64,000 bases of DNA from the NCBI GenBank assembly GCA_016937945.1, contig JAFGVP010000073.1, positions 1 through 64,000 of the forward strand, written 5' to 3'. Of this stretch, positions 28,494-42,780 are shown one piece after another. The stretch is from Pontiellaceae bacterium. GTDB lineage: Bacteria > Verrucomicrobiota > Kiritimatiellia > Kiritimatiellales > Pontiellaceae. The notes under the pieces were generated by a model. The model was not told the DNA's origin. It did not search any database and saw only the letters and a program-made list of their open reading frames with translations. Within the stretch, counting starts at the first letter, position 1; the number at the start of each line of letters is the position of its first letter. Made by a program: the position numbers and the translations under genes.

Positions 28494-29183
28494 TCACGGA
28501 CAATAGCGGTATCCCACGCCATGTACCGTGCGCAACGCCGATGGATTGGCCGGATCGGCCTCCATTTTCTTGCGCAGCTTGGAAACATGCTGGTCCAGCG
28601 TACGGGTCGTACCGAAATAGCCGACGCCCCAAACCGCATCAAGCAGTTGATTGCGTGACAGCACCTCGCCGGCATGCTCATGGAAAAAACGGATCAGCTC
28701 CAGTTCGCGGTGCGACAGCGGTTCGCTATTTCCGGCCATGGAAATCGTGTAGGCCCGGCAGTCAACCGTGGCCGCCCCGAAGGAAAAAGTATCCGGAATC
28801 GACGATGTCGGATTGGTTTCTCCGGCGCGACGCAAGACCGCTTCCACGCGGGCGAGCAGTTCATGTACGCCAAACGGTTTGGTCACATAATCATCAGCGC
28901 CTAGCTGCAGGCCGACGACCTTGTCAATCTCTTCGCCTTTCGCAGTAAGCATGATGATCGGCACCCGGCTGTCTGACTTGCGGATTTCGCGGCATACATC
29001 ATACCCGCTCTTTTCCGGCATCATGACATCCAGCAGAACCAGATCGAAACGCCCCGCCGCATACTGCCCCAACGCAGTCGCGCCGTCACCGACCGCGCAC
29101 ACATCAAATCCGTCGCTCTCAAACAGATCAATCAGTCCGGCGCGAATGTTGGCATCATCTTCTGCAATCAGAATTTTCTTCAT
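28494..29183 (-). CDS. OmpR-type response regulator, last gene of the sortase locus
   Basis: 229 residues from the ATG at 29183, which overlaps the sensor kinase stop (ATGA) and has GGAG upstream. The receiver (1-120) has acidic residues in IAEDDAN, the phospho-acceptor Asp in LVLLDVMMPEKSG and the conserved Lys in DDYVTKPFG. The winged-helix DNA-binding domain (130-229) has LSHRELELIRFF and RTLDQHVSKLRKKM. It pairs with the upstream kinase. The TTACA direct repeats at 32223-32248 are a plausible target. Confidence 0.94.
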   Translation of the reverse strand: MKKILIAEDDANIRAGLIDLFESDGFDVCAVGDGATALGQYAAGRFDLVLLDVMMPEKSGYDVCREIRKSDSRVPIIMLTAKGEEIDKVVGLQLGADDYVTKPFGVHELLARVEAVLRRAGETNPTSSIPDTFSFGAATVDCRAYTISMAGNSEPLSHRELELIRFFHEHAGEVLSRNQLLDAVWGVGYFGTTRTLDQHVSKLRKKMEADPANPSALRTVHGVGYRYCP

Positions 29184-30793
29184 CGGTTCTCCACTCCCGG
29201 AACGGTCATGACAAAGCAGGCCCCGCCGCATTCGGCCTCGTGATATTCCAGCGCCCCGCCCAGATCCGTAATCAGCCGGCGCGACAGACTCAGCCCCAAA
29301 CCGCTGCCCTGACTGCTCGCCGTGATCGAATCATCAATGCGGTAAAAGCGTTCATAGATTTTCCGGCGATGCTCCTTTGCAATACCGGGTCCGGCGTCGG
29401 CCACGGCAATCCGGAATCCGCCGGATGCCTCGGCAAGCTCAATCGTCAGCCGGCCGCCGGCCGCCGCATATTTGACGGCATTATCAATCAGGTTCAGCAG
29501 CACCTGCTGGACGGCGTCGCGATCCGATTTAACCATGGCCGTAACATTCGGAAGAACGACCGACAGCTCCATGCCGGCCTCGCCAATCCGGATGCGCTGC
29601 GACGCCACCGTTTCCGAAACAACCTCGCACAGATCAAAATGGCTGATCCGGTATTGTTTCCGGTTCTGTTCCAGCCGACTGAAATCGAGCACATTATTCA
29701 CCAACCGCGAAAGCCGCTCACTTTCCGAGGCAATGGTTTTCAGATAACGGCCACGCTTTTCGATATCGCTTACGCGCCCCTCGCCAAGCAACTCGGCATA
29801 CATCCGGATCGTGGTCAGCGGCGTTTTGAGCTCGTGCGAAACATTGGATACAAACGTCGTTTTCTGCTGAGCTTCCAGCCGGTTCCGAACCGTTTCGCGC
29901 AGCAGCAGTCCGCCGGCGGAAAAGAGCACAATGAAGAGAATGAAAACAAGCAGGCCGGAAAGCAGCGCATAGCGTTGCGCCGCGGGACCTAACGCTCCGT
30001 CCGTCGTATGCAGCGCAAGCTCCCAATGCGGAAGCGCCGGACCCACCGGAACCGACAGCACCGCGGAAGTGCCGGATGTCTCGGCGATGGATCCCGACTG
30101 CATGATGCGGCGCCCGCTGCCATCCAGCAACAGGATCATTCGCCCGTCCACAATATCGAGGGGCATCGCCTGCTGCAGCTCGCAAAGCAGCATGGCCATT
30201 TCCAGTTCGACTCCATAGCGCAGGCCGTCGCGCTCCATCCAACCGATCATGCCGAGCCGGTTTTCCCAGTACCACGGAATCCAGCCGCTATGCATCGGCG
30301 GGTTCCAACCGCGGGATCGGGAAAACAGCCGTCTCGAAACCGGCGCCGCATATTCATCTTCCTGAACCACCTCGTCCCATCCGTGCGTTCCATCAAACAA
30401 CGTGCTGTAACGAATCAGGAATCCCTGCTCCTCCTTCGTCAGAGGCTCCGAATCATTCGGAAGCAGAAGATCGTTTGCGCCGCGCCAGACAAACACGTTG
30501 CGGACCAGCGGATTGGTCCGCTCCATCTCGCGCAGGGTATCGCGCAACGCGGAGGCAGGAATCGATTCAAGCGAGCGCATCAGTCCATCCTGAACCGCGG
30601 AAACCGCCAGTTCCAGCTGCTCCGCCCGGTTCTGCAGACGGAGTTCTTCGGTCTCGCGAACGGAACTGTCGAGCCGGGCCTGTTCCCGCGAAAGCAGACG
30701 CGCCGCCACTCCCGCTATAATCGCCGCGGAGAGCAGCAGCAACACCCCGTACAGAATGACCGGTGACTTCCTAATAGGAGGACCCCCGTTCAC
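29180..30793 (-). CDS. Sensor histidine kinase with large periplasmic domain
   Basis: 537 residues. Membrane segments are at about 11-31 and 275-298, enclosing a periplasmic domain of roughly 240 residues with no recognised fold. Then come HisKA with His in FVSNVSHELKTPLTTIRMYAE and an ATPase domain (VADAGPGIA, GSGLGLSLSRRL). The start is a GTG at 30793, 23 bp inside the upstream von Willebrand gene; a start slightly further in is possible. It is translationally coupled to both neighbours, so it should sense something about the von Willebrand/sortase machinery in the periplasm. Confidence 0.88.
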   Translation of the reverse strand: MNGGPPIRKSPVILYGVLLLLSAAIIAGVAARLLSREQARLDSSVRETEELRLQNRAEQLELAVSAVQDGLMRSLESIPASALRDTLREMERTNPLVRNVFVWRGANDLLLPNDSEPLTKEEQGFLIRYSTLFDGTHGWDEVVQEDEYAAPVSRRLFSRSRGWNPPMHSGWIPWYWENRLGMIGWMERDGLRYGVELEMAMLLCELQQAMPLDIVDGRMILLLDGSGRRIMQSGSIAETSGTSAVLSVPVGPALPHWELALHTTDGALGPAAQRYALLSGLLVFILFIVLFSAGGLLLRETVRNRLEAQQKTTFVSNVSHELKTPLTTIRMYAELLGEGRVSDIEKRGRYLKTIASESERLSRLVNNVLDFSRLEQNRKQYRISHFDLCEVVSETVASQRIRIGEAGMELSVVLPNVTAMVKSDRDAVQQVLLNLIDNAVKYAAAGGRLTIELAEASGGFRIAVADAGPGIAKEHRRKIYERFYRIDDSITASSQGSGLGLSLSRRLITDLGGALEYHEAECGGACFVMTVPGVENR

Positions 30794-32117
30794 TCTTCTG
30801 CTGATTAAAGATCCAGAAACTGCTGGTCCGCATTGATTTCCGACCCTCCTTATTCAGCTCCTGCTGGTTTTCAATATCCTTGGCCTGCTGCTGCATCTCC
30901 GCCGCCTGTGCCTCCAACTCCGGCAGTGAATTTTGCTCGGCAAACAGGGCCAGGTTTGCGCTGTTTACATAGAGAGTCTGTGCGGCGGCTTTATAATCCT
31001 GTTGGTCTGCATAATCGATGGCCTGCTCCTGCGCCACAGCCACTTCATTCAGCAGCACCTCTTTCTTCACCGCAACGTTCATGTTCCGGTCGACATCCTC
31101 GTTGTCCGCGCTGTAGCGTACCATTGCCTGACCGGAGCTGTTTGCCGGACGATTGGCGATCATGTCCTGATACGCACAGCGAGCCGCGGCAATCTGGCGG
31201 ACTTCGCCTTCGGCTCCGATGGGAAGCTCCACCTCAATGAGGGCATATTTCTGCTGGCCGCCGTAGAGCTGGTTCAGGGAAACTTCCACATGATCATTCC
31301 CGACGCGGCCGTCCCGGCCGATAATACGCAGCGGTCGAATGCCTTCCGGAAATTCCACATCAATCGTCACCTTGCCGGCAACCACGCTCAGCACATCGCC
31401 CAGCTCGGAAGCAAAGATGCGCGGCAGGTCGACACTCGATTCCACGAAATAGGTATTTCCATCGCTGTTCTGCGCCATCTGCGCCATGAGGTCTTCGTTA
31501 TAATCCGTACCCACCCCGATCGTCGTCACGGAGATTCCTTCCTTGCGAAGCGCCGTACCCAGCCGACCGAGTTCCGCCGGAGTTGAAGGCCCTACGTTTG
31601 CCAGTCCGTCCGACAGTAGCAGAATGCGGTTTACATAACGCCCGTCGAGATGCTTGCGGACTTCGGAAGCCCCCTGGCTCACGCCGGCAAACAGCGCCGT
31701 ACTCCCGCCGGCCGTTACCGACCGGATACGCCCTTCGATCCACTCCGTATTCGCCGCACTCTGAGCCGGCACAACGGTTGTGACCTGATCGTCATACGTC
31801 ACCAGCGAAAAGATATCCTCCGGCCCGAGCCTCAGCAGTGCCGCAATCGCCGCCTCACGCGCCTTGTCAATTTTCTGCCCGCCCATGGAACCGGAACGGT
31901 CCATCACGATAGTCAGATTCACCGGCGGCCGCTTGTTCAGCTTCGGGGCTTTGGGCGCATCCAGCGTAACCTTGACCACCGCCGTCTGCCGACTGCCGGA
32001 AAGCACCACAGGATGATCCATCTCCACTCGACAGACCACGTTCGACTCCGCCTGTGCGCTCCATGCGCCGGCCATCGCGACCGCCGCCGCCAGAAACTGT
32101 TTTGCCAATACCTTCAT
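30771..32117 (-). CDS. Exported von Willebrand factor A domain protein
   Basis: 448 residues; the second of two adjacent ATG codons (32117) best fits the GGAGG site. The signal peptide ends near WSAQAES. The vWA domain (about 65-240) has an intact metal-ion site: DRSGSMGG, a Thr in TAGGSTALFAG and LLSDGLANVG. It continues with a beta-rich region and a helical, Gln/Glu-rich C-terminus (about 375-448). The layout resembles the YfbK-like family. It has no C-terminal membrane segment and no sorting signal, so it is probably a soluble periplasmic partner. It lies between the sortase and the sensor kinase, overlapping the latter. Confidence 0.85.
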   Translation of the reverse strand: MKVLAKQFLAAAVAMAGAWSAQAESNVVCRVEMDHPVVLSGSRQTAVVKVTLDAPKAPKLNKRPPVNLTIVMDRSGSMGGQKIDKAREAAIAALLRLGPEDIFSLVTYDDQVTTVVPAQSAANTEWIEGRIRSVTAGGSTALFAGVSQGASEVRKHLDGRYVNRILLLSDGLANVGPSTPAELGRLGTALRKEGISVTTIGVGTDYNEDLMAQMAQNSDGNTYFVESSVDLPRIFASELGDVLSVVAGKVTIDVEFPEGIRPLRIIGRDGRVGNDHVEVSLNQLYGGQQKYALIEVELPIGAEGEVRQIAAARCAYQDMIANRPANSSGQAMVRYSADNEDVDRNMNVAVKKEVLLNEVAVAQEQAIDYADQQDYKAAAQTLYVNSANLALFAEQNSLPELEAQAAEMQQQAKDIENQQELNKEGRKSMRTSSFWIFNQQKSERGSSY

Positions 32118-32222
32118 CATGCACCTCCATGCTAGAAGATTCCCGACGTTGTGTCACGGGTCGTCCGCAACTGATCAACGAAGGAAAGGTAGCCGGCCGT
32201 ACAGCAGAAATGGTCACAGGCA

Positions 32223-32248
32223 TGTAAAACGTTTGTAAAAATATGTAA
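32223..32248 (-). promoter_or_regulatory. Direct-repeat site, probable response-regulator binding
   Basis: On the minus strand TTACA occurs three times (32244-32248, 32234-32238, 32223-32227) with 10- and 11-bp periods, the spacing used by OmpR/PhoB-type regulators. It lies 106-131 bp before the second von Willebrand gene, in the 146-bp gap behind the sortase gene. Confidence 0.45.
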
Positions 32249-32263
32249 CGGCACCGAACCAGC

Positions 32264-32791
32264 TCAGACCGGTTCGGCAACAGCAACAAACCGATCCGGC
32301 GCCGGACCGATGAAGCGGAATGGATAGCAGGTCAAAAGCAGGACGCATTCATGTTTTGACTGCTCCTGAAGAAAAGATTCCACCTCCTGCTTTGCGCAGA
32401 TATGAATCCGCCGAACGCGATACACCGCAACAGATCCATCGCGGGTTTCAATCAGGACTTCATCACCCTCTTTAATAGCATTCAATTCCCTAAAATGGGT
32501 GTCGCGATGCGCCATGATCAACGTCGCCAAACCGATCGACTCACTCCCCGGAAACCGGGACAGGTTTTCTCTATCTACGCCGGTCAGTACCAGCTGGCTG
32601 ATGTTTGCAGCAGGAATCTCCAGCCACAGGGAGGGTTCTCCATGCAGTCCCAATGCAGGCTCATTGCAGCAACAATTCCAGATTACAGCCGCATTCCACA
32701 TCAACCAGCCACGCTTCAGGCGCGAACCCACAGGACAGGCCGACACCGCCAGCCCTGCAATCAGCAACAGCAGCCATGCCCTACGCCGCAC
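32264..32791 (-). CDS. Sortase (small, class D/GN-like transpeptidase)
   Basis: 175 residues from a GTG at 32791, placed by GGAG five bases upstream. An N-terminal membrane anchor (MRRRAWLLLLIAGLAVSAC) leads into the sortase barrel. The catalytic triad is visible: His in LIMAHRDTHFREL, Cys in LLTCYPFRF and Arg in PAPDRFVAV. Sortases cleave a C-terminal signal and join the protein to an acceptor. In Gram-negatives a small sortase is typically paired with one dedicated VIT/vWA substrate, and the VIT/vWA gene here overlaps this start by 11 bases. The final acceptor in such cells is unknown. Length is typical of this small type. Confidence 0.92.
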   Translation of the reverse strand: MRRRAWLLLLIAGLAVSACPVGSRLKRGWLMWNAAVIWNCCCNEPALGLHGEPSLWLEIPAANISQLVLTGVDRENLSRFPGSESIGLATLIMAHRDTHFRELNAIKEGDEVLIETRDGSVAVYRVRRIHICAKQEVESFLQEQSKHECVLLLTCYPFRFIGPAPDRFVAVAEPV

Positions 32792-34751
32792 GTACGCTCC
32801 TTCGCCACAGCAGTGCGGCAAGAAGAATCAAAATCCCGAGAACCAGTTGCAGGGCTTCCTGAGTTGCAGTGGCGTACATCTGCCAGCCCTTCGGTGCCTC
32901 CACGGGAACGCGGACAGAAATCAGTTCGCCATCGCGGTTCACCACCTGTTCTTCGACGGCAACGCGCGATGTAAACCGGGTGACCAGCTGATGTTTCAAC
33001 GCAATGCGAATGACCGCCTGTTTCAATTCGTTGCCCACCACCTCATCATCGGTCTGCATCAGCTGAACCATCAGATCTTTGATCTGCATGCGGCCGTAAA
33101 GTGTATCGATTGCATCGTGTTGCTCGGTAGCGTGGTGTTCGAGATCGATTACATATTCCTGATGTTCGCCATCGATCTGGCCGATCACTTTCACCCGTCC
33201 TTCAAATCCGCCGGGGGCATAAGCGGCGACCTGTAGCGGACGGCCATAAAAGATATCCGGGCACCGCATCGGATAGGTATTCACTTCGGCCCCTTCCCAT
33301 TCCAGTTCCACATCAGTCAGCACAGGAGCATCCAGTGTCTGGAAAAAGTCGGCCATTACCTCGCCTATGTCTTCATGTGATCGAATGAAGCGCGACTGCC
33401 CGCGACCGACCTCAGCCATCCGATGCATCAGGAATTCATTGGGCGCACTGCCGATACCGAAGGTAAACAGCCGGGTATTGCCCAGCTCCTTTGACAGCAG
33501 ATTGATCAACGATTCCTCGTTACCGACATCGCCATCGGTCAGGAAAACCACCAACGGCATGCGACTGCCTGTATCGCCCATCAGCGAAAGCACATATGAA
33601 AGCGCCGACTGCATTTCCGTTCCGCCGTCGGCCGTCAGGTTGGCAATATATTCGCGCGCACCGGCCAGTTTGTCCGGCGAGGCATCGCGCAGGTCCGGAC
33701 TGAACCCGCTGTAGTTATCGGCAAACCGGACCACAGTAAAACGGTCTTCGGGATTCAGGATGTCCAGACATTTACGCAGGCCGGCCCGGGCCTGACTGAT
33801 GGAATCGCCGGACATGGAACCGCTGGTGTCGATCAGGAATATAACATCCTTCGGCAACGCCTTGTGCTTTCGCTCCCGTCCTATCGGAGGAAATACGCTC
33901 AGCAATCCGTACATCTCGTCACCCACCGACTGAACAAACGTAACAGCTGGTGCCTCATTGGCTCGCAACTGCACGGCAAGACTGAACTCACAATCGGGGC
34001 GAATCACGTCCTGCCCAGGCATGATGCGATAGCAGTCATGACCTTCATCATGAACCTGAATAGCATGAGTGCTGGAGGTGACCGTCCTTACCGGAAGTCC
34101 GTTGAGCGTTACATCAATACTCAACCGGTGACCGGAATCAAGACAGGGATACAGAACCGGAGGATTCAGGCGAGCGGCATCTTCCACCACCGTTTCCGGT
34201 TGCAGGTTTTCATCATACTTGAAGGGAATGTACCGCTCGCCCACAACCGTCGGAAACGTAATGTCATACCGGTCTTTTTGAAACCGCAACGCTTCGACAT
34301 ACGAAAAACAGATATCCACCGATTCACCCGGCATAAGGTTGGCCACGGACGTCGTAAAGAGGTTGGGCCGCTCCTGTTCAAGCAGGGCCGTATGGCGTCC
34401 TTCGGCCTTTGCCTGTTCATAAACCGCCTTCGCCTCTTCCTTCTCCCGTACAGTGCTCCTGACAACCCGGTCTTTTAACCGCAGTTCGAACCCGTCCACC
34501 GCCGCCTCCGACGGCAGAGGGAAAATATACACCGCTTCAAGCGGTCGATCCGCCGGATTGGTAAACCGCTGAATCACTTCTGTGCGTGCAATCCCTGCTG
34601 TAACGTCGATGTGTACCTCCGTCTTTTTCAACGGCAGCACAACCAACGCTTCGTTAGTGGTCGCCGGCGAAAACAGCACGCCGGCAATTTCCTGATCAGC
34701 GTGACCGAGCATGGTGGCGAACAGGGAAACCAGCATCATCCATTTTTTCAT
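32781..34751 (-). CDS. VIT and von Willebrand domain protein, probable sortase substrate
   Basis: 656 residues. A signal peptide (MKKWMMLVSLFATMLGHA) precedes a VIT domain (about 40-165: HIDVTAGIARTEVIQRFTNP and AVYIFPLPSEAAVDGFEL). The vWA domain (about 300-470) has the metal site DTSGSMSGDS and VFLTDGDVGNE. The C-terminus has a tripartite sorting signal: YATATQ, a hydrophobic helix, then RRSVRAA. In the proteobacterial sortase-target family a motif like LPxTAT is usual; here LP is replaced by MY. It overlaps creD (ATGA) upstream and the sortase downstream. It is probably exported and handled by the sortase. Confidence 0.92.
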   Translation of the reverse strand: MKKWMMLVSLFATMLGHADQEIAGVLFSPATTNEALVVLPLKKTEVHIDVTAGIARTEVIQRFTNPADRPLEAVYIFPLPSEAAVDGFELRLKDRVVRSTVREKEEAKAVYEQAKAEGRHTALLEQERPNLFTTSVANLMPGESVDICFSYVEALRFQKDRYDITFPTVVGERYIPFKYDENLQPETVVEDAARLNPPVLYPCLDSGHRLSIDVTLNGLPVRTVTSSTHAIQVHDEGHDCYRIMPGQDVIRPDCEFSLAVQLRANEAPAVTFVQSVGDEMYGLLSVFPPIGRERKHKALPKDVIFLIDTSGSMSGDSISQARAGLRKCLDILNPEDRFTVVRFADNYSGFSPDLRDASPDKLAGAREYIANLTADGGTEMQSALSYVLSLMGDTGSRMPLVVFLTDGDVGNEESLINLLSKELGNTRLFTFGIGSAPNEFLMHRMAEVGRGQSRFIRSHEDIGEVMADFFQTLDAPVLTDVELEWEGAEVNTYPMRCPDIFYGRPLQVAAYAPGGFEGRVKVIGQIDGEHQEYVIDLEHHATEQHDAIDTLYGRMQIKDLMVQLMQTDDEVVGNELKQAVIRIALKHQLVTRFTSRVAVEEQVVNRDGELISVRVPVEAPKGWQMYATATQEALQLVLGILILLAALLWRRSVRAA

Positions 34752-36082
34752 CGAACGACTCCTTCCGGTTTAACGCCGATGGCGTACCAATCCACCTTAC
34801 GGGTAATCAGCATGGCGCCGGCCATCAACCCAAACAGCAGGACCGATCCGGCAATCAGAGCGTGGTCTTCCGACTGCAGCAAAGCAAACAACGCGGCATA
34901 AAGCAGGGAAAGCAGGGCACCGAACGATAGACCGCGGCGGGCCGACCGCATCACGTTGCACAGATAAAAGCTGATCAGACCAATGGTTGCCAGGCTGGCC
35001 AGGCCATAGGAAATGCCGAAGCCGACATGCTCCGACAGACTGAGCAGGAGAAGGAAGAAAACAGCCTGGGCCAGCCCGACAAATCCATACTGCACCGGAT
35101 GAATCCGAAGATCCTCCAGCATTTCAAAAAGGAAGAACGCAGAAAAGGTGATGAAGATAAACAGGAAGCCATACTTCAGCGCGCGGTCCGTCAACGGATA
35201 GGGATTGACCGGATCAATCAGGCTCACGCCCATTTGCTGCATCCGGGAGGGCGCCCCGTCGAGCATGGCCTGCTGAGCGGAACAGGCCAGTCCGTTCACG
35301 TTCCACTCCGCAGCAAATCCGTCGTCAGAGACCGTGCGATCGGTCGCCAGAAAATCGCCGATAAAGCTCGGATGTGGCCATGAGGAATTCAGACGAATGC
35401 AATTTTCCGAACCGATCGGAACAAAGGTCAGCGAGCCCATGCCGTACAGATCCAGATCCATCGAAAAATCAAAGGTCTGTCCCGCCAGGGATTCCGGGTC
35501 CGGCAGCTCGGCGTGAACACCGCTCGAGGCATTTGACAGCAGACTTCCCGCTTCGACTTTGAGCGGTCGGTTGTTCCACGACAGCGCGGACACATGGGAA
35601 ATTCCGCGCGGGTCCGCAATCATGAAGCCGGCGGACGCCGAGATCAGTTCCACGCGGGAAGCCTCTTTCTCCGCCAGCGGCTCAAGCAGGGGAAATGTCA
35701 CCGCTCCTGAGAGGAGTCCTTCACTCTGGAACACATTGGCCTTAAAGATGCCCCGGTAGCGCTCCTGCACCGCCATTCCGCCTTCATAGCTGAAGCTTTC
35801 CGGGAAGACGAGAACCGTCCGTTCCTCGCTTCGCTCCTTGTCGTACCAGCCATCCTTGCTCGCACTGTAAAGTCGTTCGTTCCAGGTTTCTCGATAGACC
35901 AGTGTAAAAACCGGCCCTGAAATTTTCTGTTCACCGGCATAGCTCCCCGCGATATCCCGTTCCACTTCATACTGTCGCTGACGCCGCTCCATCGTCAGTC
36001 CGCCGATTGATGACAGAATGAACAGCAGGATCAGTGCGATCCCGCCAAGCACGATTAACTTTATTCCCACTCTCCATTGCAT
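34748..36082 (-). CDS. creD: CreD family inner-membrane protein
   Basis: 444 residues. An N-terminal membrane helix (IKLIVLGGIALILLFILSSIGGL) and the family signature MERRQRQYEVERDIAGSY are followed by a periplasmic domain (about 45-290) and five or six C-terminal helices (FLFIFITFSAFFLFEMLEDLRIHPVQYGFVGLAQ is characteristic). In enteric bacteria creD is the main target of CreBC and affects the envelope and beta-lactam response; its biochemical role is not known. AAGGAGG precedes the ATG, and a CreB-type binding site lies 53 bp upstream. It is the first gene of the stretch running into the sortase. Confidence 0.95.
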   Translation of the reverse strand: MQWRVGIKLIVLGGIALILLFILSSIGGLTMERRQRQYEVERDIAGSYAGEQKISGPVFTLVYRETWNERLYSASKDGWYDKERSEERTVLVFPESFSYEGGMAVQERYRGIFKANVFQSEGLLSGAVTFPLLEPLAEKEASRVELISASAGFMIADPRGISHVSALSWNNRPLKVEAGSLLSNASSGVHAELPDPESLAGQTFDFSMDLDLYGMGSLTFVPIGSENCIRLNSSWPHPSFIGDFLATDRTVSDDGFAAEWNVNGLACSAQQAMLDGAPSRMQQMGVSLIDPVNPYPLTDRALKYGFLFIFITFSAFFLFEMLEDLRIHPVQYGFVGLAQAVFFLLLLSLSEHVGFGISYGLASLATIGLISFYLCNVMRSARRGLSFGALLSLLYAALFALLQSEDHALIAGSVLLFGLMAGAMLITRKVDWYAIGVKPEGVVR

Positions 36083-36134
36083 ACCCAGCCTCCTTGGTTA
36101 TGCGAAGAGACTGCCACGCTCTTTTGAAGGCCGT

Positions 36135-36161
36135 ATGAACTGAATGTGAAATGGAGGTGAA
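36135..36161 (-). promoter_or_regulatory. CreB-type binding site upstream of creD
   Basis: On the minus strand TTCAC-N6-TTCAC-N6-TTCAT (36157-36161, 36146-36150, 36135-36139). This matches the published E. coli cre tag TTCACnnnnnnTTCAC with a third half-site in the same 11-bp phase. It ends 53 bp before the creD start codon. Confidence 0.75.
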
Positions 36162-36173
36162 AAAAGGATTATT

Positions 36174-36245
36174 CAGCCACAAAGGGCACAAGAAACCCAA
36201 AACATGGCATTCGTAATCCATGCTACCCTTTGTGTCTTTTGTGGC
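36174..36245. repeat. Hairpin repeat, CCACAAAGGGCACA type
   Basis: GCCACAAAGGGCACAAGAAA at the left pairs with the inverted sequence ending CTTTTGTGGC at the right. CATGG and CCATG form an inner stem. It starts a 440-bp creC-creD gap (36083-36524) that holds this repeat, the next two repeats and the CreB site, but no gene. Confidence 0.65.
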
Positions 36246-36305
36246 AAAATAATCTACCCCTCAACCGGGACGAAGAAACGCAGCGCGGCATTGCCACAAC
36301 CGGGG

Positions 36306-36382
36306 TTCACCACAGAGGACACCGAGGAACACAGAGGAATACCCTCCGCGACCTCTATGCCCTCTAGCGGAGCGGTTGGTAA
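36306..36382. repeat. Hairpin repeat, CACAGAGGACACCGAGG type
   Basis: The left half reads ACCACAGAGGACACCGAGG with a second AACACAGAGG unit. The right half holds CCTCTATGCCCTCT and GGTTGGT as an imperfect complement. Such 'accacagaggacacagagg' hairpins are widespread intergenic elements in many bacterial groups; their role is not settled. Confidence 0.55.
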
Positions 36383-36423
36383 AAACCTGCCGGAAAGACA
36401 GGAAAATGACGGATAACCGTACA

Positions 36424-36461
36424 GACGCAAAGAGGCTCTCTTTCTTCGCGGCTTTGCGGTC
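36424..36461. repeat. Hairpin repeat, CGCAAAG type
   Basis: GACGCAAAG (36424-36432) pairs imperfectly with CTTTGCGGTC (36452-36461), with a CTCTCTTTCTTCG loop region. It is the third inverted repeat in this gap and lies just past the creC stop region. Confidence 0.55.
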
Positions 36462-36524
36462 ATGAACTCCATTCCACCTGCGGCGCGCCCGGAGATCGCG
36501 CCCTACCTTATGGTGAAGAACACC

Positions 36525-37961
36525 CTACCCTTCCACGGGAATAAGGAGCGAGGCACAGACACCGCCTTCGGGACGGTTGGAGAGCCGGACATCGCCGGAA
36601 TGCAGTTTGGCGATTTCACGCACAAAGTTAAGCCCGAGCCCTGAGCCCTTCTTTCCGTTGGCCGGGCGCTGCAGGGAATAGAAGCGTTCAAAGATGCGGT
36701 CGATGGCATAATCGGGAATGCCTGAACCGCGATCCAGCACCTCAAAGATCATCCGTTCGTTTTCGCGCCGGACCACTAATTCAACGGCGGCCCCATCCGG
36801 AGAAAAATCAAGCGCGTTGCGCAACAGGTTGGACAACGCCTGACGCAGCAGGAAATATTCGCCGCACAGCGTCAGGTCATCCGGCACGGATTTGTTAATT
36901 TCGATTTTCCGGGCGCGGGCCACCGGCATCAGGCTATCGAGCACATCGTTCAGCAATTCGTGCGCATCGATCAGTTCCGTATGCATAAGCCCCTTGCGCT
37001 TTTCCAGCGCGGCGAGCGAAAGCATCCGGTCAACCAGTCCCTGCATCCGTTCCGACTCGGACCGGATATTATCCAGAAAACGTTTTCGCTGCTCCGGCGC
37101 CATTTCTTCGTTCAGCAGCTCGGCGGCGCCGCGGATTGCGGCCAGCGGACTCTTCATCTCATGAGTCAGCGACTGCACATACTCTTCGACATACTGCTTG
37201 CCTTCCAGTGCATCGCGCATCTCTTCGAATGCCGTGGCCAGCTCGCTCATTTCGCCGCCATGCCCAAGCTTCGGGCGCCGGACGGACCGGCCGTCACGAA
37301 TGGCCCGCGCATAACCGGTCAGCGCCTTGACCGGATGAATGATCCACAGCGAAACCGGAATCAGCATCAGCAGGATCGCAAGAAACGCCACCGTACAGGA
37401 AATCACCAGCCGCGCCTTGGCCTGCTGCATGAACGGCGCAATGCTCTTCACCGGTTTACCAACCGTTACAGCGCCGACAATCTCACCATCCACAACAATC
37501 GGAGCGGCAATGTAAAAGTGAAAGCTGTCCATGTCGCCCGGAACATCATACGACGCACGCGCACCGTATTCGCCCTTGAGTGCCAGACGCGTATCGCGCC
37601 AGTGGTATTCATCGCCGGCCATCATGTCGTGATGAGAATCATAAACAATCTGCTCATCGCGATTCACCACCAGCACCCGCACATTCATGTTGGTCTTGGT
37701 GTGGTTATAGATTCCCGCCGCAAGTTCCCGTTCGCCGGCGGATTCCAGCGCATCGCGAAACGAATCATCCATCTCGATTCGTCCATCTACCACCTGCCGG
37801 CCCACCTGCTCCGCAAGAAGCACCGAAGTATCCACCAGCGACTCCTCCATCGTAATGAAATAGTGCAGCCGCACATCCTGCACAATCCAGTCGACCAGCA
37901 GATAAAAACCGGCTGACAGCAGCACCAGTGCAGTCAGCAGCAGACGGGTACGCATCTTCAT
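36525..37961 (-). CDS. creC: Sensor histidine kinase CreC
   Basis: 478 residues from the ATG at 37961, overlapping the creB stop as ATGA. Membrane segments at about 7-27 and 185-206 flank a periplasmic Cache-like sensor domain (VRVLVVNRDEQIVYDSH, FHFYIAAPIVVDGEIVGAVTVGKP). A HAMP domain, HisKA with YVQSLTHEMKSPLAAIRGAAELL (the CreC signature, His at its centre) and an ATPase domain (DRGSGIPDYA, GSGLGLNFVREIAKLH) follow. It should phosphorylate CreB. A gap of 442 bp full of hairpin repeats separates it from creD, which therefore has its own CreB-controlled promoter. Confidence 0.94.
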   Translation of the reverse strand: MKMRTRLLLTALVLLSAGFYLLVDWIVQDVRLHYFITMEESLVDTSVLLAEQVGRQVVDGRIEMDDSFRDALESAGERELAAGIYNHTKTNMNVRVLVVNRDEQIVYDSHHDMMAGDEYHWRDTRLALKGEYGARASYDVPGDMDSFHFYIAAPIVVDGEIVGAVTVGKPVKSIAPFMQQAKARLVISCTVAFLAILLMLIPVSLWIIHPVKALTGYARAIRDGRSVRRPKLGHGGEMSELATAFEEMRDALEGKQYVEEYVQSLTHEMKSPLAAIRGAAELLNEEMAPEQRKRFLDNIRSESERMQGLVDRMLSLAALEKRKGLMHTELIDAHELLNDVLDSLMPVARARKIEINKSVPDDLTLCGEYFLLRQALSNLLRNALDFSPDGAAVELVVRRENERMIFEVLDRGSGIPDYAIDRIFERFYSLQRPANGKKGSGLGLNFVREIAKLHSGDVRLSNRPEGGVCASLLIPVEG

Positions 37962-38665
37962 GCATTCACCTGCAGGCAATACCCCCAGCCGCGGCGCGTC
38001 TGCAGGCAGTCGGAACGGGGATCAATCTCACGCAGCTTGGAACGCAGTGTCTTGATATGCGTATCCACGGTCCGGTCAAAACTTGCTTCCGGCTCGTCCC
38101 ACGCATGATTCATCAGCTGCTCGCGCGAAAAGACCTGACCCGGATGAGCAATCATCAGCTCCAGCATGCGGTATTCATAGCGCGACAAACCGAGCGGCTT
38201 TCCGCGATAAAAGATATCCTTGCGTAGTGCATCGACGCGGAAAAGGGACGGCGCCTCGACCGCCTGCGCGGGATTATGGTTTCCGTTGGTCCGGCGCAGA
38301 ATGGCGCGGATGCGCGCGGTCAGCTCCCGCGGACTGAACGGCTTGGTCATATAGTCGTCCGCACCCAGCTCAAGCCCGACAATGCGATCGATCTCCTCCT
38401 CGCGCGCGGTCAGGAAAATGATCGGCACCTCGGAACAGGTCCGGATGCGACGGCAGAAATCAAAGCCGTTTTCATCCGGCAGGCCGACATCAAGTACCAT
38501 CAGATCAACCGGTTGCATCTGTAATACCTGCCACGCACCGCCAGCCGTATTCACACAGATCGGCTCCATGTTTTCCGTACTCACCGCAAAAGCGATGTTC
38601 TCGGCAATCGACGGCTCATCCTCGACGATCAGGATCTGCTTTTTCTCAATGTGGATGGATTCCAT
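37958..38665 (-). CDS. creB: Response regulator CreB
   Basis: 235 residues. I place the start at the ATG at 38665 (MESIHIEKKQILIVEDEPS); a GTG 22 codons upstream would overlap the DUF504 remnant and is less likely. The receiver has acidic residues in IVEDEPS, Asp in LMVLDVGLPDENGFD and Lys in DDYMTKPFS. The winged-helix domain ends with FDRTVDTHIKTLRSKLR and TRRGWGYCLQ, close to E. coli CreB. A CreB-type site before creD and the coupling to creC support the name. Confidence 0.93.
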   Translation of the reverse strand: MESIHIEKKQILIVEDEPSIAENIAFAVSTENMEPICVNTAGGAWQVLQMQPVDLMVLDVGLPDENGFDFCRRIRTCSEVPIIFLTAREEEIDRIVGLELGADDYMTKPFSPRELTARIRAILRRTNGNHNPAQAVEAPSLFRVDALRKDIFYRGKPLGLSRYEYRMLELMIAHPGQVFSREQLMNHAWDEPEASFDRTVDTHIKTLRSKLREIDPRSDCLQTRRGWGYCLQVNA

Positions 38666-40006: not shown

Positions 40007-42385
40007 TCACGGAGTGCCCATGGCCTTCATCATGGATTCCATCTGTTTCTGCATTGCTTCCAACTGCTGTTGCATGCCCTTCATTTGATTCTGCATTGTG
40101 CCCGATTTGGCCATCGCTTCCATCTGCTTCTGTATCTGCTGCATCTGCGCCTGCACTTGCGCTGCCTGCGCATTATTGAGCGGCACATCGGTCGAATAAC
40201 TATAGCTCACCTGGTTTACCGGAGCGGGTACCGATTGCGGCACATGCCGGGAAGTCTGCGGTTTGCCCTGCGCGATTCTTGCCAATACATCGTCTTTATC
40301 GCTGAACGATGAGATTGTATTGGCAATCCGCCCGGCCTCAGCGCTCATGGACAACGCAATAAACTGATCGGCACACCGGCTGGCAGCCTCATCCTTTAAA
40401 GAAAAAGAAGACATATTGCCCAAAGCCATCAGTGCTATTTCGACATCGCCCAACGAGCCCGCATCCACTGCTATTTTCGCCAATGCATCATCCCGCTCCG
40501 AAAAGCTGCTCATCCCCCTCGTAATCTGTAATCGAGTCCTCATCTCTTTAGCCATCCATTGCCTCCTGGACAGCTCTACCCGATTGAGCAGTTCCATCCT
40601 CGCGCCGCTGGAAGATATCTTGCGTGCAACACGGTCCGCCTCATCATACATACCAATGGAGACGAGTTGATCCACGCATTGGCCGACGATCCCATCCCTT
40701 GCTGGAGTCGACGACATGTTGTTCAAGGCTTCCAGTACAGCATCAACGTTTCGGGAGCGGCTGGCCATCATGGCGGCTTCCGCCAAAGCTTGATCCTGTT
40801 TCTCGATACGGGATATGGATTGAATAAATGCAATCTGCTCTTTCGAAAGCTTGCTTTCCATCGCCGTCGCTTCATCCACAGGTTCCGGATGCAATACAAC
40901 GTCGCTATCGCTCCGGCCAAATACCGCCACAACCTTGCCGTCCTCGCGAAAGATGAGATTGCCGTTCGGATCGAGATTGGCCGTGTTGATCCCGCCGGGA
41001 GCGGTGAACACCAGTTCGTCATAGTTCACCGTCCACTGCATACGCTTTCGCAACGAACTCCCCTCCAGCAATGCCTGGCCATTCTCCTCGATCAGCAGAT
41101 GCCGCTTCCCATCGGAAGATATAGACGGCATAAACCATTCTCCGAGCAATGGAATGGCGACATCGGCGGACGATGCAACCCGTTCCTCGTTTGGCATGGT
41201 GGCCGGCTCAGCATCCATTGCATCCCAGGCAACGTTGGTTTCGACCAGCATGGCCAGTATCTCGTCTTCCGTTTCGGCACTGATCTCGGCCAAAGGTTCA
41301 TTGCGCTCTTCCTCTGCAACGGTAACGGCAGCCAATGGCGCGGCGACACCCATAAACAGAACGACGGTAGCGACGACAACCCCAACACCCAACGCCTTGC
41401 GGTTCCTCTGCCCATCGAGGATGGCCAGCAACCGACCTTCGAGCACATTCCTGCGCGCCATCGTGATAGCGGCACCATATAGCGGAACACGGCAGGGCTG
41501 CGTCCGGGCAATCATCAGCAGCTGATCCGCGTAGGCCGTGGCTTCGGCACCGCTGCCCAGCACATAGTCGTCGCAGGCATGTTCGCGTTCCAGCCGCATC
41601 CGACGCATGGCCACCACATAGAGCGGATTAAACCAGTGCAGCGCCGTAGCGAAGCTGCAAAGCAAATGGATCAGACAGTCGTGCCGCTTCACATGGGCCA
41701 GCTCATGGGCCAATACGGACTCCCGCTCCTCTTCCGGCCAATTCCTGCCAACGGACGGAACAATGATAACCGGTCGAAAGATCCCAAAGGCCATCGGCAT
41801 CTGCCCCCCGTCGCGCTCCAACACAACCACGCAGCGCCGAAGGGCCAGCTTCTGCTTCAAACGATCATACGTCGCCAACCAGGCACCAGTGGGTGGCGAA
41901 GCCTTGCGGGCAATCCGTAGCGCCGCAACATAACCAATGGGCAGCGGCAACAGCACAAGCAAGACTCCGGAAATCCATACCATCCATGCAATCTGGTACC
42001 CATTGATCGGCACGGACGGCAATTCCGCTGGAAGAACTTCCACGGGGACCGGAAAGCTTTCGGCATCGGCTTCCGCTACGGGCCCAACTTCCGCACCAGT
42101 CGATTCCAACGCCGAATGACCAGCAAGTACCGGGGACACGGAGACACGAACCGTCGGCACTGACCGCAACGGAACAGGTATGGTTTCCCTCGGCACGACG
42201 GCAAGTTTCCATTGCGGCATCGCAACATATGCAACGGGAACCAGCAGCGTTCCAAGCAGCGCGAGCATCCAAACCAAATGGCGTTGCGATGCCGACAGGC
42301 GGCGAAACAGCAAAACCACCAGCCCGGCACACACGAGCAACAAACTGCACTTCAGTTCGATTCCGACAAGATCCACCCAGTCCAT
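40007..42385 (-). CDS. M56 family (BlaR1-like) membrane metallopeptidase sensor
   Basis: 792 residues. N-terminal helices at about 10-30, 36-57 and 130-155 surround the zinc peptidase, whose site is VLAHELAHVKRHD (HExxH near 230), with a downstream Glu in LEREHACDDYVLG. A further membrane helix lies at about 330-350. The remaining roughly 440 residues are periplasmic: a beta-rich part (WFMPSISSDGKRHLLIEENG), helical repeats (MSSFSERDD, MSSFSLKDE, ISSFSDKDD) and a Met/Gln coiled tail ending SMMKAMGTP. There is no penicillin-binding domain as in BlaR1, so the signal is not obviously a beta-lactam. It follows blaI after 11 bp, as in BlaR1-BlaI systems. Confidence 0.9.
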   Translation of the reverse strand: MDWVDLVGIELKCSLLLVCAGLVVLLFRRLSASQRHLVWMLALLGTLLVPVAYVAMPQWKLAVVPRETIPVPLRSVPTVRVSVSPVLAGHSALESTGAEVGPVAEADAESFPVPVEVLPAELPSVPINGYQIAWMVWISGVLLVLLPLPIGYVAALRIARKASPPTGAWLATYDRLKQKLALRRCVVVLERDGGQMPMAFGIFRPVIIVPSVGRNWPEEERESVLAHELAHVKRHDCLIHLLCSFATALHWFNPLYVVAMRRMRLEREHACDDYVLGSGAEATAYADQLLMIARTQPCRVPLYGAAITMARRNVLEGRLLAILDGQRNRKALGVGVVVATVVLFMGVAAPLAAVTVAEEERNEPLAEISAETEDEILAMLVETNVAWDAMDAEPATMPNEERVASSADVAIPLLGEWFMPSISSDGKRHLLIEENGQALLEGSSLRKRMQWTVNYDELVFTAPGGINTANLDPNGNLIFREDGKVVAVFGRSDSDVVLHPEPVDEATAMESKLSKEQIAFIQSISRIEKQDQALAEAAMMASRSRNVDAVLEALNNMSSTPARDGIVGQCVDQLVSIGMYDEADRVARKISSSGARMELLNRVELSRRQWMAKEMRTRLQITRGMSSFSERDDALAKIAVDAGSLGDVEIALMALGNMSSFSLKDEAASRCADQFIALSMSAEAGRIANTISSFSDKDDVLARIAQGKPQTSRHVPQSVPAPVNQVSYSYSTDVPLNNAQAAQVQAQMQQIQKQMEAMAKSGTMQNQMKGMQQQLEAMQKQMESMMKAMGTP

Positions 42386-42396
42386 GGCATCCCCCT

Positions 42397-42780
42397 TCAG
42401 CGACGTTTCGCTTGTTCGATCAGCTTGCTCAAACGGTCAAAATCCTCATCGGTCAGGTTTGCGCTGTCCAGATCGAGCAGCGATGCGATAGCCTTTTCCG
42501 TCGAGTTTTCAAAGAAGGTGCTCAGCACCCGGCGCATGGCCCCTTTTCGGGCCGCGGTCAAACTTGCCACAGGCTTGTAGAAATATTTACGGCCACTCGT
42601 GCGGTGCGTGACCTGCCCCTTTTCCTCCAGCAGGCGAAGCATCGTGCGAACGGCGGAATACCCCGGCGCGTCATCCATCAGTTCCTGGACATCCAAGGCG
42701 GAAAGTTCGCCCTTCTCAAAAAGCAGATCCATGATCTGCCGCTCGCGGCGGCTCAGGTTTTCCGGGGCATAGTGGCTCAT
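42397..42780 (-). CDS. blaI: BlaI/MecI family transcriptional repressor
   Basis: 127 residues. A winged-helix DNA-binding domain (about 8-75: LSRRERQIMDLLFEKGELSALDV, YSAVRTMLRLLEEKG) is followed by a dimerisation segment. Family members repress their own operon until the M56 partner triggers their cleavage. A palindromic operator overlaps the promoter directly upstream. AAAGGA six bases before the ATG supports the start. The gene opens an operon with the M56 sensor and two lipoproteins. Confidence 0.94.
   Translation of the reverse strand: MSHYAPENLSRRERQIMDLLFEKGELSALDVQELMDDAPGYSAVRTMLRLLEEKGQVTHRTSGRKYFYKPVASLTAARKGAMRRVLSTFFENSTEKAIASLLDLDSANLTDEDFDRLSKLIEQAKRR

What the first reader, a model, noticed from the sequence alone, without database searches (positions are those of the whole stretch)
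28494..38665. A sortase system wired into CreBCD and a second two-component system
Seen: eight same-strand genes in the order creB, creC, creD, VIT/vWA protein, sortase, vWA protein, sensor kinase and response regulator. Most junctions overlap by 4-23 bases. Known: Gram-negative small sortases usually come with one VIT/vWA target, and marine proteobacteria have a dedicated kinase/regulator pair next to them. CreBCD is separately known as an envelope-stress system. Inference: here creD and the sortase cassette form one CreB-driven transcript, and the second kinase watches the result. I know of no description of such a combined locus.
Basis: partly seen in the sequence, partly recalled or inferred. 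Interest (0 to 1): 0.82.

Follow-up and report, generated by a model that had tools for sequence, protein, structure and literature searches.

The report
CreB-controlled sortase operon in Pontiella
In some marine anaerobic bacteria an enzyme that anchors one exported protein appears, from its DNA control site and gene order, to be controlled by the CreBC cell-wall stress system; the neighbouring second sensor system is a separate module that only happens to lie next door.

Summary
The eight minus-strand genes are real, but they form three units: (1) creB-creC; (2) creD-VIT/vWA-sortase, joined by conserved 4- and 11-bp overlaps; (3) vWA-kinase-regulator, behind a 143-bp gap with its own repeats. 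Unit 2 is preceded, 63 bp before creD, by an exact CreB box (TTCACN6TTCAC) plus two further half-sites, the only exact box outside a gene in this 4.28-Mb assembly. All 8 creD genes of the genus carry the box (7 exactly). All 3 sortase-bearing species keep creBCD-VIT-sortase. Outside the genus the link recurs without creD: creBC-[box]-VIT-sortase in two lineages, and [box]-VIT-sortase with CreBC elsewhere in a third. These VIT proteins lie in one well-supported clade, apart from the mostly proteobacterial cassettes, whose promoters had no box. Unit 3 occurs intact in five genomes without sortase and is absent from the other two sortase-bearing species. Transcription and CreB binding are untested. 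The parts are known; the wiring seems new: a CreB-regulated variant of the dedicated Gram-negative sortase cassette, whose sortase and target fall below the class GN cut-offs.

The parts
37958..38665 (-). creB, response regulator
   Evidence: NF008296 307.3 bits, cut-off 273
36525..37961 (-). creC, sensor kinase; 4-bp overlap with creB
   Evidence: NF008312 528.6 bits, cut-off 356
36146..36161 (-). exact cre/blr tag TTCACCTCCATTTCAC, ending 63 bp before creD
   Evidence: consensus from PMC4689548
36124..36145 (-). two further 11-bp-spaced half-sites (TTCAT, TTCAA)
   Evidence: conserved in the 8 creD promoters of the genus
34748..36082 (-). creD, inner membrane protein
   Evidence: NF008712 456.7 bits, cut-off 275; PF06123
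32781..34751 (-). VIT/vWA protein, proposed sortase substrate; C-terminal MYATAT motif, hydrophobic helix, RR; 4-bp overlap with creD
   Evidence: TIGR03788 549.4 bits against cut-off 551.65; PF08487; tails
32264..32791 (-). sortase, start GTG at 32791, 11-bp overlap with VIT/vWA gene
   Evidence: PF04203 66 bits; invariant HRD, TCxPF, Arg; fold matches solved sortases
32121..32263 (-). gap with 11-bp-spaced TTACA repeats, proposed separate promoter of the vWA-HK-RR module
   Evidence: repeats recur in four of five relatives
30771..32120 (-). second vWA protein (neighbouring module, not part of the sortase system)
   Evidence: PF00092; distribution
29180..30793 (-). second sensor kinase (neighbouring module)
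   Evidence: HisKA and HATPase_c; synteny with the vWA gene in 5 other genomes
28494..29183 (-). second response regulator (neighbouring module)
   Evidence: Response_reg and Trans_reg_C

Best explanation
CreC senses a cell-envelope signal (in other bacteria, peptidoglycan stress through PBP4) and phosphorylates CreB. CreB binds the tandem TTCAC half-sites before creD and controls one transcript, creD-VIT/vWA-sortase. The VIT/vWA protein is exported and held by its C-terminal helix and basic tail. The co-made, membrane-anchored sortase cuts its TAT-type motif and transfers it to a nucleophile in the periplasm or envelope. The result is a single-substrate sortase deployed as part of the CreBC response. 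The vWA-HK-RR genes downstream are an independent operon that lies next door in this one species. Shown here: gene identities, conserved order and overlaps, conserved CreB boxes, recurrence in other lineages. Inferred: transcription, CreB binding, the sign of regulation, the signal, the cleavage and the anchoring partner.
For: Exact cre tag 63 bp before creD, the only exact copy outside a gene in the assembly; box present in all 8 creD promoters of the genus, half-sites 96% conserved against 70% in spacers; creBCD-VIT-sortase with 4- and 11-bp overlaps in all 3 sortase-bearing species, which are not a clade; exact tag directly before VIT-sortase in G591, L039 and L040, whose genomes have CreB above the cut-off, and none before the nearest two relatives without such a CreB; no exact tag before the other VIT loci of the 80; sortase active-site residues and fold; sorting-signal-like tail.
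Against: No expression or binding data. CreBC represses creD in S. maltophilia (PMC4689548), so the sign is open. L039, L040 and several relatives are draft or metagenome-assembled genomes, and L039's label may be wrong. The substrate motif MYATAT is not a canonical LPxTG. Four of seven creBCD loci of the genus have no sortase, so CreBCD does not need it.
Confidence: 0.75

Rival explanations
1. One reading: all eight genes are one system, CreB drives the cassette and the second kinase senses the anchored product.
For: Same strand, direct adjacency, overlapping genes within each unit.
Against: vWA-HK-RR occurs intact in G014, G004, G048, G050 and G056, none with a sortase; it is absent from the other two sortase-bearing species, and in G016 the PQQ dehydrogenase gene follows the sortase directly; it has its own conserved upstream repeats.
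Confidence: 0.07
2. CreB controls creD only; VIT-sortase sits behind creD by accident and has its own regulation.
For: Sortase-free relatives keep creBCD with the same box; other genes can follow creD directly, such as an alpha-2-macroglobulin gene in G012.
Against: Overlaps leave no room for a promoter between the genes; the order is kept in three species that are not a clade; the box lies directly before VIT-sortase where creD is absent or elsewhere.
Confidence: 0.14
3. It is an ordinary class GN (proteobacterial dedicated) sortase system that was transferred into this genus and landed near creBCD.
For: The VIT/vWA protein nearly reaches TIGR03788; sortases are rare in the class (5 of 346 genomes).
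Against: Sortase 67.1 bits against the TIGR03784 cut-off of 158.25; neither kinase and neither regulator reaches TIGR03785 or TIGR03787; the VIT proteins lie in a separate clade (100% SH-aLRT, branch 1.07); the CreB link recurs in three further lineages.
Confidence: 0.04

Closest known systems
CreBC/BlrAB-creD regulon (E. coli, Aeromonas, P. aeruginosa, S. maltophilia)
   Same: CreB, CreC and CreD above curated cut-offs; same gene order; same TTCACN6TTCAC box at nearly the same distance from creD as in S. maltophilia (PMC4689548)
   Different: creD is followed, with overlaps, by a VIT/vWA gene and a sortase gene; in other lineages the box precedes VIT-sortase without creD
Class GN sortase cassette with one VIT/vWA target and PdsRS-type regulators (TIGR03784, 03785, 03787, 03788)
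   Same: VIT/vWA target gene followed by one small sortase; motif-helix-basic tail; target just below the TIGR03788 cut-off
   Different: Sortase far below the TIGR03784 cut-off; separate VIT clade; linked to CreBC in the same direction rather than to the oppositely oriented kinase/regulator pair seen in many proteobacterial loci
Class D sortase (B. anthracis SrtD, 2ln7)
   Same: Best profile and fold match among solved structures; TAT in the proposed substrate motif, as in LPxTATN
   Different: 74.6 bits against the class D cut-off of 165; host has an outer membrane; a target gene next door

Membership tests
CreBC two-component system | CreB and CreC pass curated equivalog cut-offs | tested here: met
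   307.3 against 273 and 528.6 against 356
CreBC two-component system | cre/blr tag before creD | tested here: met
   exact tag 63 bp before creD, conserved in the genus
CreBC two-component system | CreB binds the tag and controls the downstream genes | not testable with these tools
   needs binding and expression experiments
CreD | passes the curated cut-off | tested here: met
   456.7 against 275
Sortase superfamily | sortase domain with catalytic His, Cys and Arg, and the fold | tested here: met
   PF04203 66 bits; invariant residues; fold
Class GN (proteobacterial dedicated) sortase system | sortase passes TIGR03784 | tested here: not met
   67.1 against 158.25
Class GN (proteobacterial dedicated) sortase system | target passes TIGR03788 | tested here: not met
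   549.4 against 551.65, a narrow miss
Class GN (proteobacterial dedicated) sortase system | dedicated kinase and regulator pass TIGR03785 and TIGR03787 | tested here: not met
   creC 126.3 against 612.2 and creB 157.0 against 335.7; second regulator 135.1, second kinase not among its best 25 families
Class D sortase | passes NF033746 | tested here: not met
   74.6 against 165
Single-target sortase cassette | one sortase in the genome, next to a protein with a sorting-signal tail | tested here: met
   one PF04203 match in the genome; tail; other substrates were not searched for
Single-target sortase cassette | the target is cleaved and anchored by the sortase | not testable with these tools
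   needs biochemistry

The most novel reading that the evidence does not exclude
A clade of VIT/vWA-sortase cassettes in Pontiella, another Kiritimatiellia family, a Lentisphaerae-labelled genome and one further lineage is an old CreB regulon: CreBC, known mainly for creD, uses a sortase-processed vWA protein as an envelope-stress effector, sometimes with and sometimes without CreD beside it.
Probability: 0.6. Interest if true: 0.7.

Novelty: new variant of a known kind. Interest (0 to 1): 0.6.

Why it matters
What CreD does, what CreBC is for outside beta-lactam resistance, and why Gram-negative bacteria keep a sortase for one protein are all open. A conserved operon with a conserved CreB box ties the three together and gives direct tests in a cultivated species (P. 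sulfatireligans F21). No paper in the searched library links sortase and creD (its single hit is an unrelated review).

Tried and rejected
Eight genes as one system: rejected by synteny and distribution of the vWA-HK-RR module. Promoter and terminator scans were near chance level and are not used as evidence. A weak sortase hit in G402 lies on a contig with no match to any gene of this locus and looks like a contaminant. The class of L039's genome held only one other genome, whose best VIT locus has no sortase match, no CreBC and no tag. The three other exact tags in this genome lie inside genes. The second kinase's sensor region gave no informative fold match, only its catalytic part matched. 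Whether the untagged proteobacterial genomes carry CreB was not tested.

Full report
Anatomy. Eight genes lie on the minus strand between 38665 and 28494. Curated profiles confirm CreB, CreC and CreD. Behind creD come a VIT/vWA protein just below the cut-off of the known sortase target family, and a small membrane-anchored sortase with invariant HRD, TCxPF and Arg positions. The sortase's predicted fold matches solved sortases, B. anthracis SrtD first. The VIT/vWA protein ends in MYATAT, a hydrophobic helix and basic residues, comparable to the LPxTAT-type tails of other sortase-linked homologues. Then follow a second vWA protein, a kinase and a regulator. Two gaps, 442 bp (creC/creD) and 143 bp (sortase/vWA), divide the locus into three units; all other junctions overlap (4, 4, 11, 23, 4 bp).

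The CreB box. The published cre/blr tag is TTCACN6TTCAC (PMC4689548). An exact copy sits at 36146-36161, ending 63 bp before creD, followed by two more 11-bp-spaced half-sites. The 4.28-Mb genome holds four exact copies; the other three are inside genes. In the genus, 8 of 28 genomes have CreD. All eight carry the array 60-67 bp before creD, seven exactly and one with one mismatch, including G012, where creBC is not next to creD. Half-site columns are 96% conserved, spacers 70%, flanks 64%. Four creD genes outside the genus have no exact tag within 500 bp.

The cassette. Sortase is rare: 5 of 346 genomes in the class. The three in the genus all have creB-creC-creD-VIT-sortase with overlapping genes. 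The three are not a clade on alaS+creBCD (AU p 3e-5), and VIT identity (65-68%) resembles creD identity (61-63%). The simplest reading is an ancestral cassette lost several times; transfer into the same place is not excluded. Sortase-free relatives keep the same chromosomal context, for example G027: alaS-creBCD-PQQ dehydrogenase-radical SAM-guaD-deoB.

Recurrence. G591, of another family of the class, has creB (331.7 bits)-creC (581)-[exact tag and two more half-sites]-VIT-sortase without creD between them. L039, a contig labelled Rokubacteria, has creB (325.4)-creC (312.3, below cut-off, but CreC is its best family)-[exact tag]-VIT-sortase, and no CreD in its genome. L040, labelled Lentisphaerae, has an exact tag directly before VIT-sortase, with CreB and CreC above cut-off on a different contig. 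Among 80 VIT-homologue loci, exact tags occur 5 times in 2.54 Mb of strand sequence; 0.12 were expected in the VIT upstream windows and 2 were found, L039 and L040, both in genomes with CreB above cut-off. The nearest two relatives, L038 and L057, whose genomes have no such CreB, have no tag. Exact tags in the whole genomes number 1 to 21; by my arithmetic the chance of one within 150 bp before a given gene is roughly 5e-5 to 2e-4 for each of these genomes. All these VIT proteins, with L038 and L057, lie on one side of a 100% branch (length 1.07) apart from 47 other sortase-linked homologues, mostly proteobacterial.

The second two-component system. Orthologues of the second vWA protein occur as vWA-HK-RR in G014, G004, G048, G050 and G056. 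None of these genomes has a sortase match; G014, G004, G048 and G050 have no CreD match, and G056 only a partial one. The other two sortase-bearing Pontiella lack the module. Its upstream repeats (TTTTACAA...TTTTACA) recur in four of the five relatives and differ from the cre tag. It is a neighbour, not a part.

Mechanism. CreBC responds to loss of PBP4 and to cefoxitin in P. aeruginosa (PMC2654508), and a Pontiella species has an outer and a cytoplasmic membrane and peptidoglycan synthesis genes (PMC10880615). I infer that an envelope signal, through CreBC, sets the level of CreD, the VIT/vWA protein and its sortase together. The sign of control is open, since CreBC represses creD in S. maltophilia (PMC4689548). 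What the vWA protein is attached to is unknown.

Novelty. CreBC-creD regulation and dedicated Gram-negative sortase cassettes (TIGR03784 beside a vault-like target, PMC3237569) are known separately. Their linkage through a conserved CreB box was not found in the papers searched, a library that lacks most subscription journals. I rate it a new variant of a known kind.

Noticed in passing
window 40007-42780 (-): A BlaI-like repressor gene and a BlaR1-like M56 peptidase gene lie between alaS and creB here but not in the relatives compared; another possible cell-wall sensor next to CreBC.
   Followed up: partly
L025 398-3778 and L029 8709-9218: In sortase-free relatives other genes follow creD almost without gap: a bacterial alpha-2-macroglobulin in G012 and a 169-aa predicted membrane protein in G008. 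The place behind creD may be a slot for envelope genes under CreB.
   Followed up: partly
L173 1759-1796 (+): In G419 four tandem half-sites lie between creD (minus strand) and a divergent plus-strand gene, and point at the latter.
   Followed up: no
window 28494-32263; L151-L155: vWA-kinase-regulator is a conserved three-gene module of the class with its own 11-bp-spaced upstream repeats; its function is unknown.
   Followed up: partly
window 36165-36524: The creC/creD gap is longer here (442 bp) than in most relatives (about 80-150 bp; G016 about 340) and holds repeat-like filler such as cacagaggacaccgaggaacacagagg.
   Followed up: no
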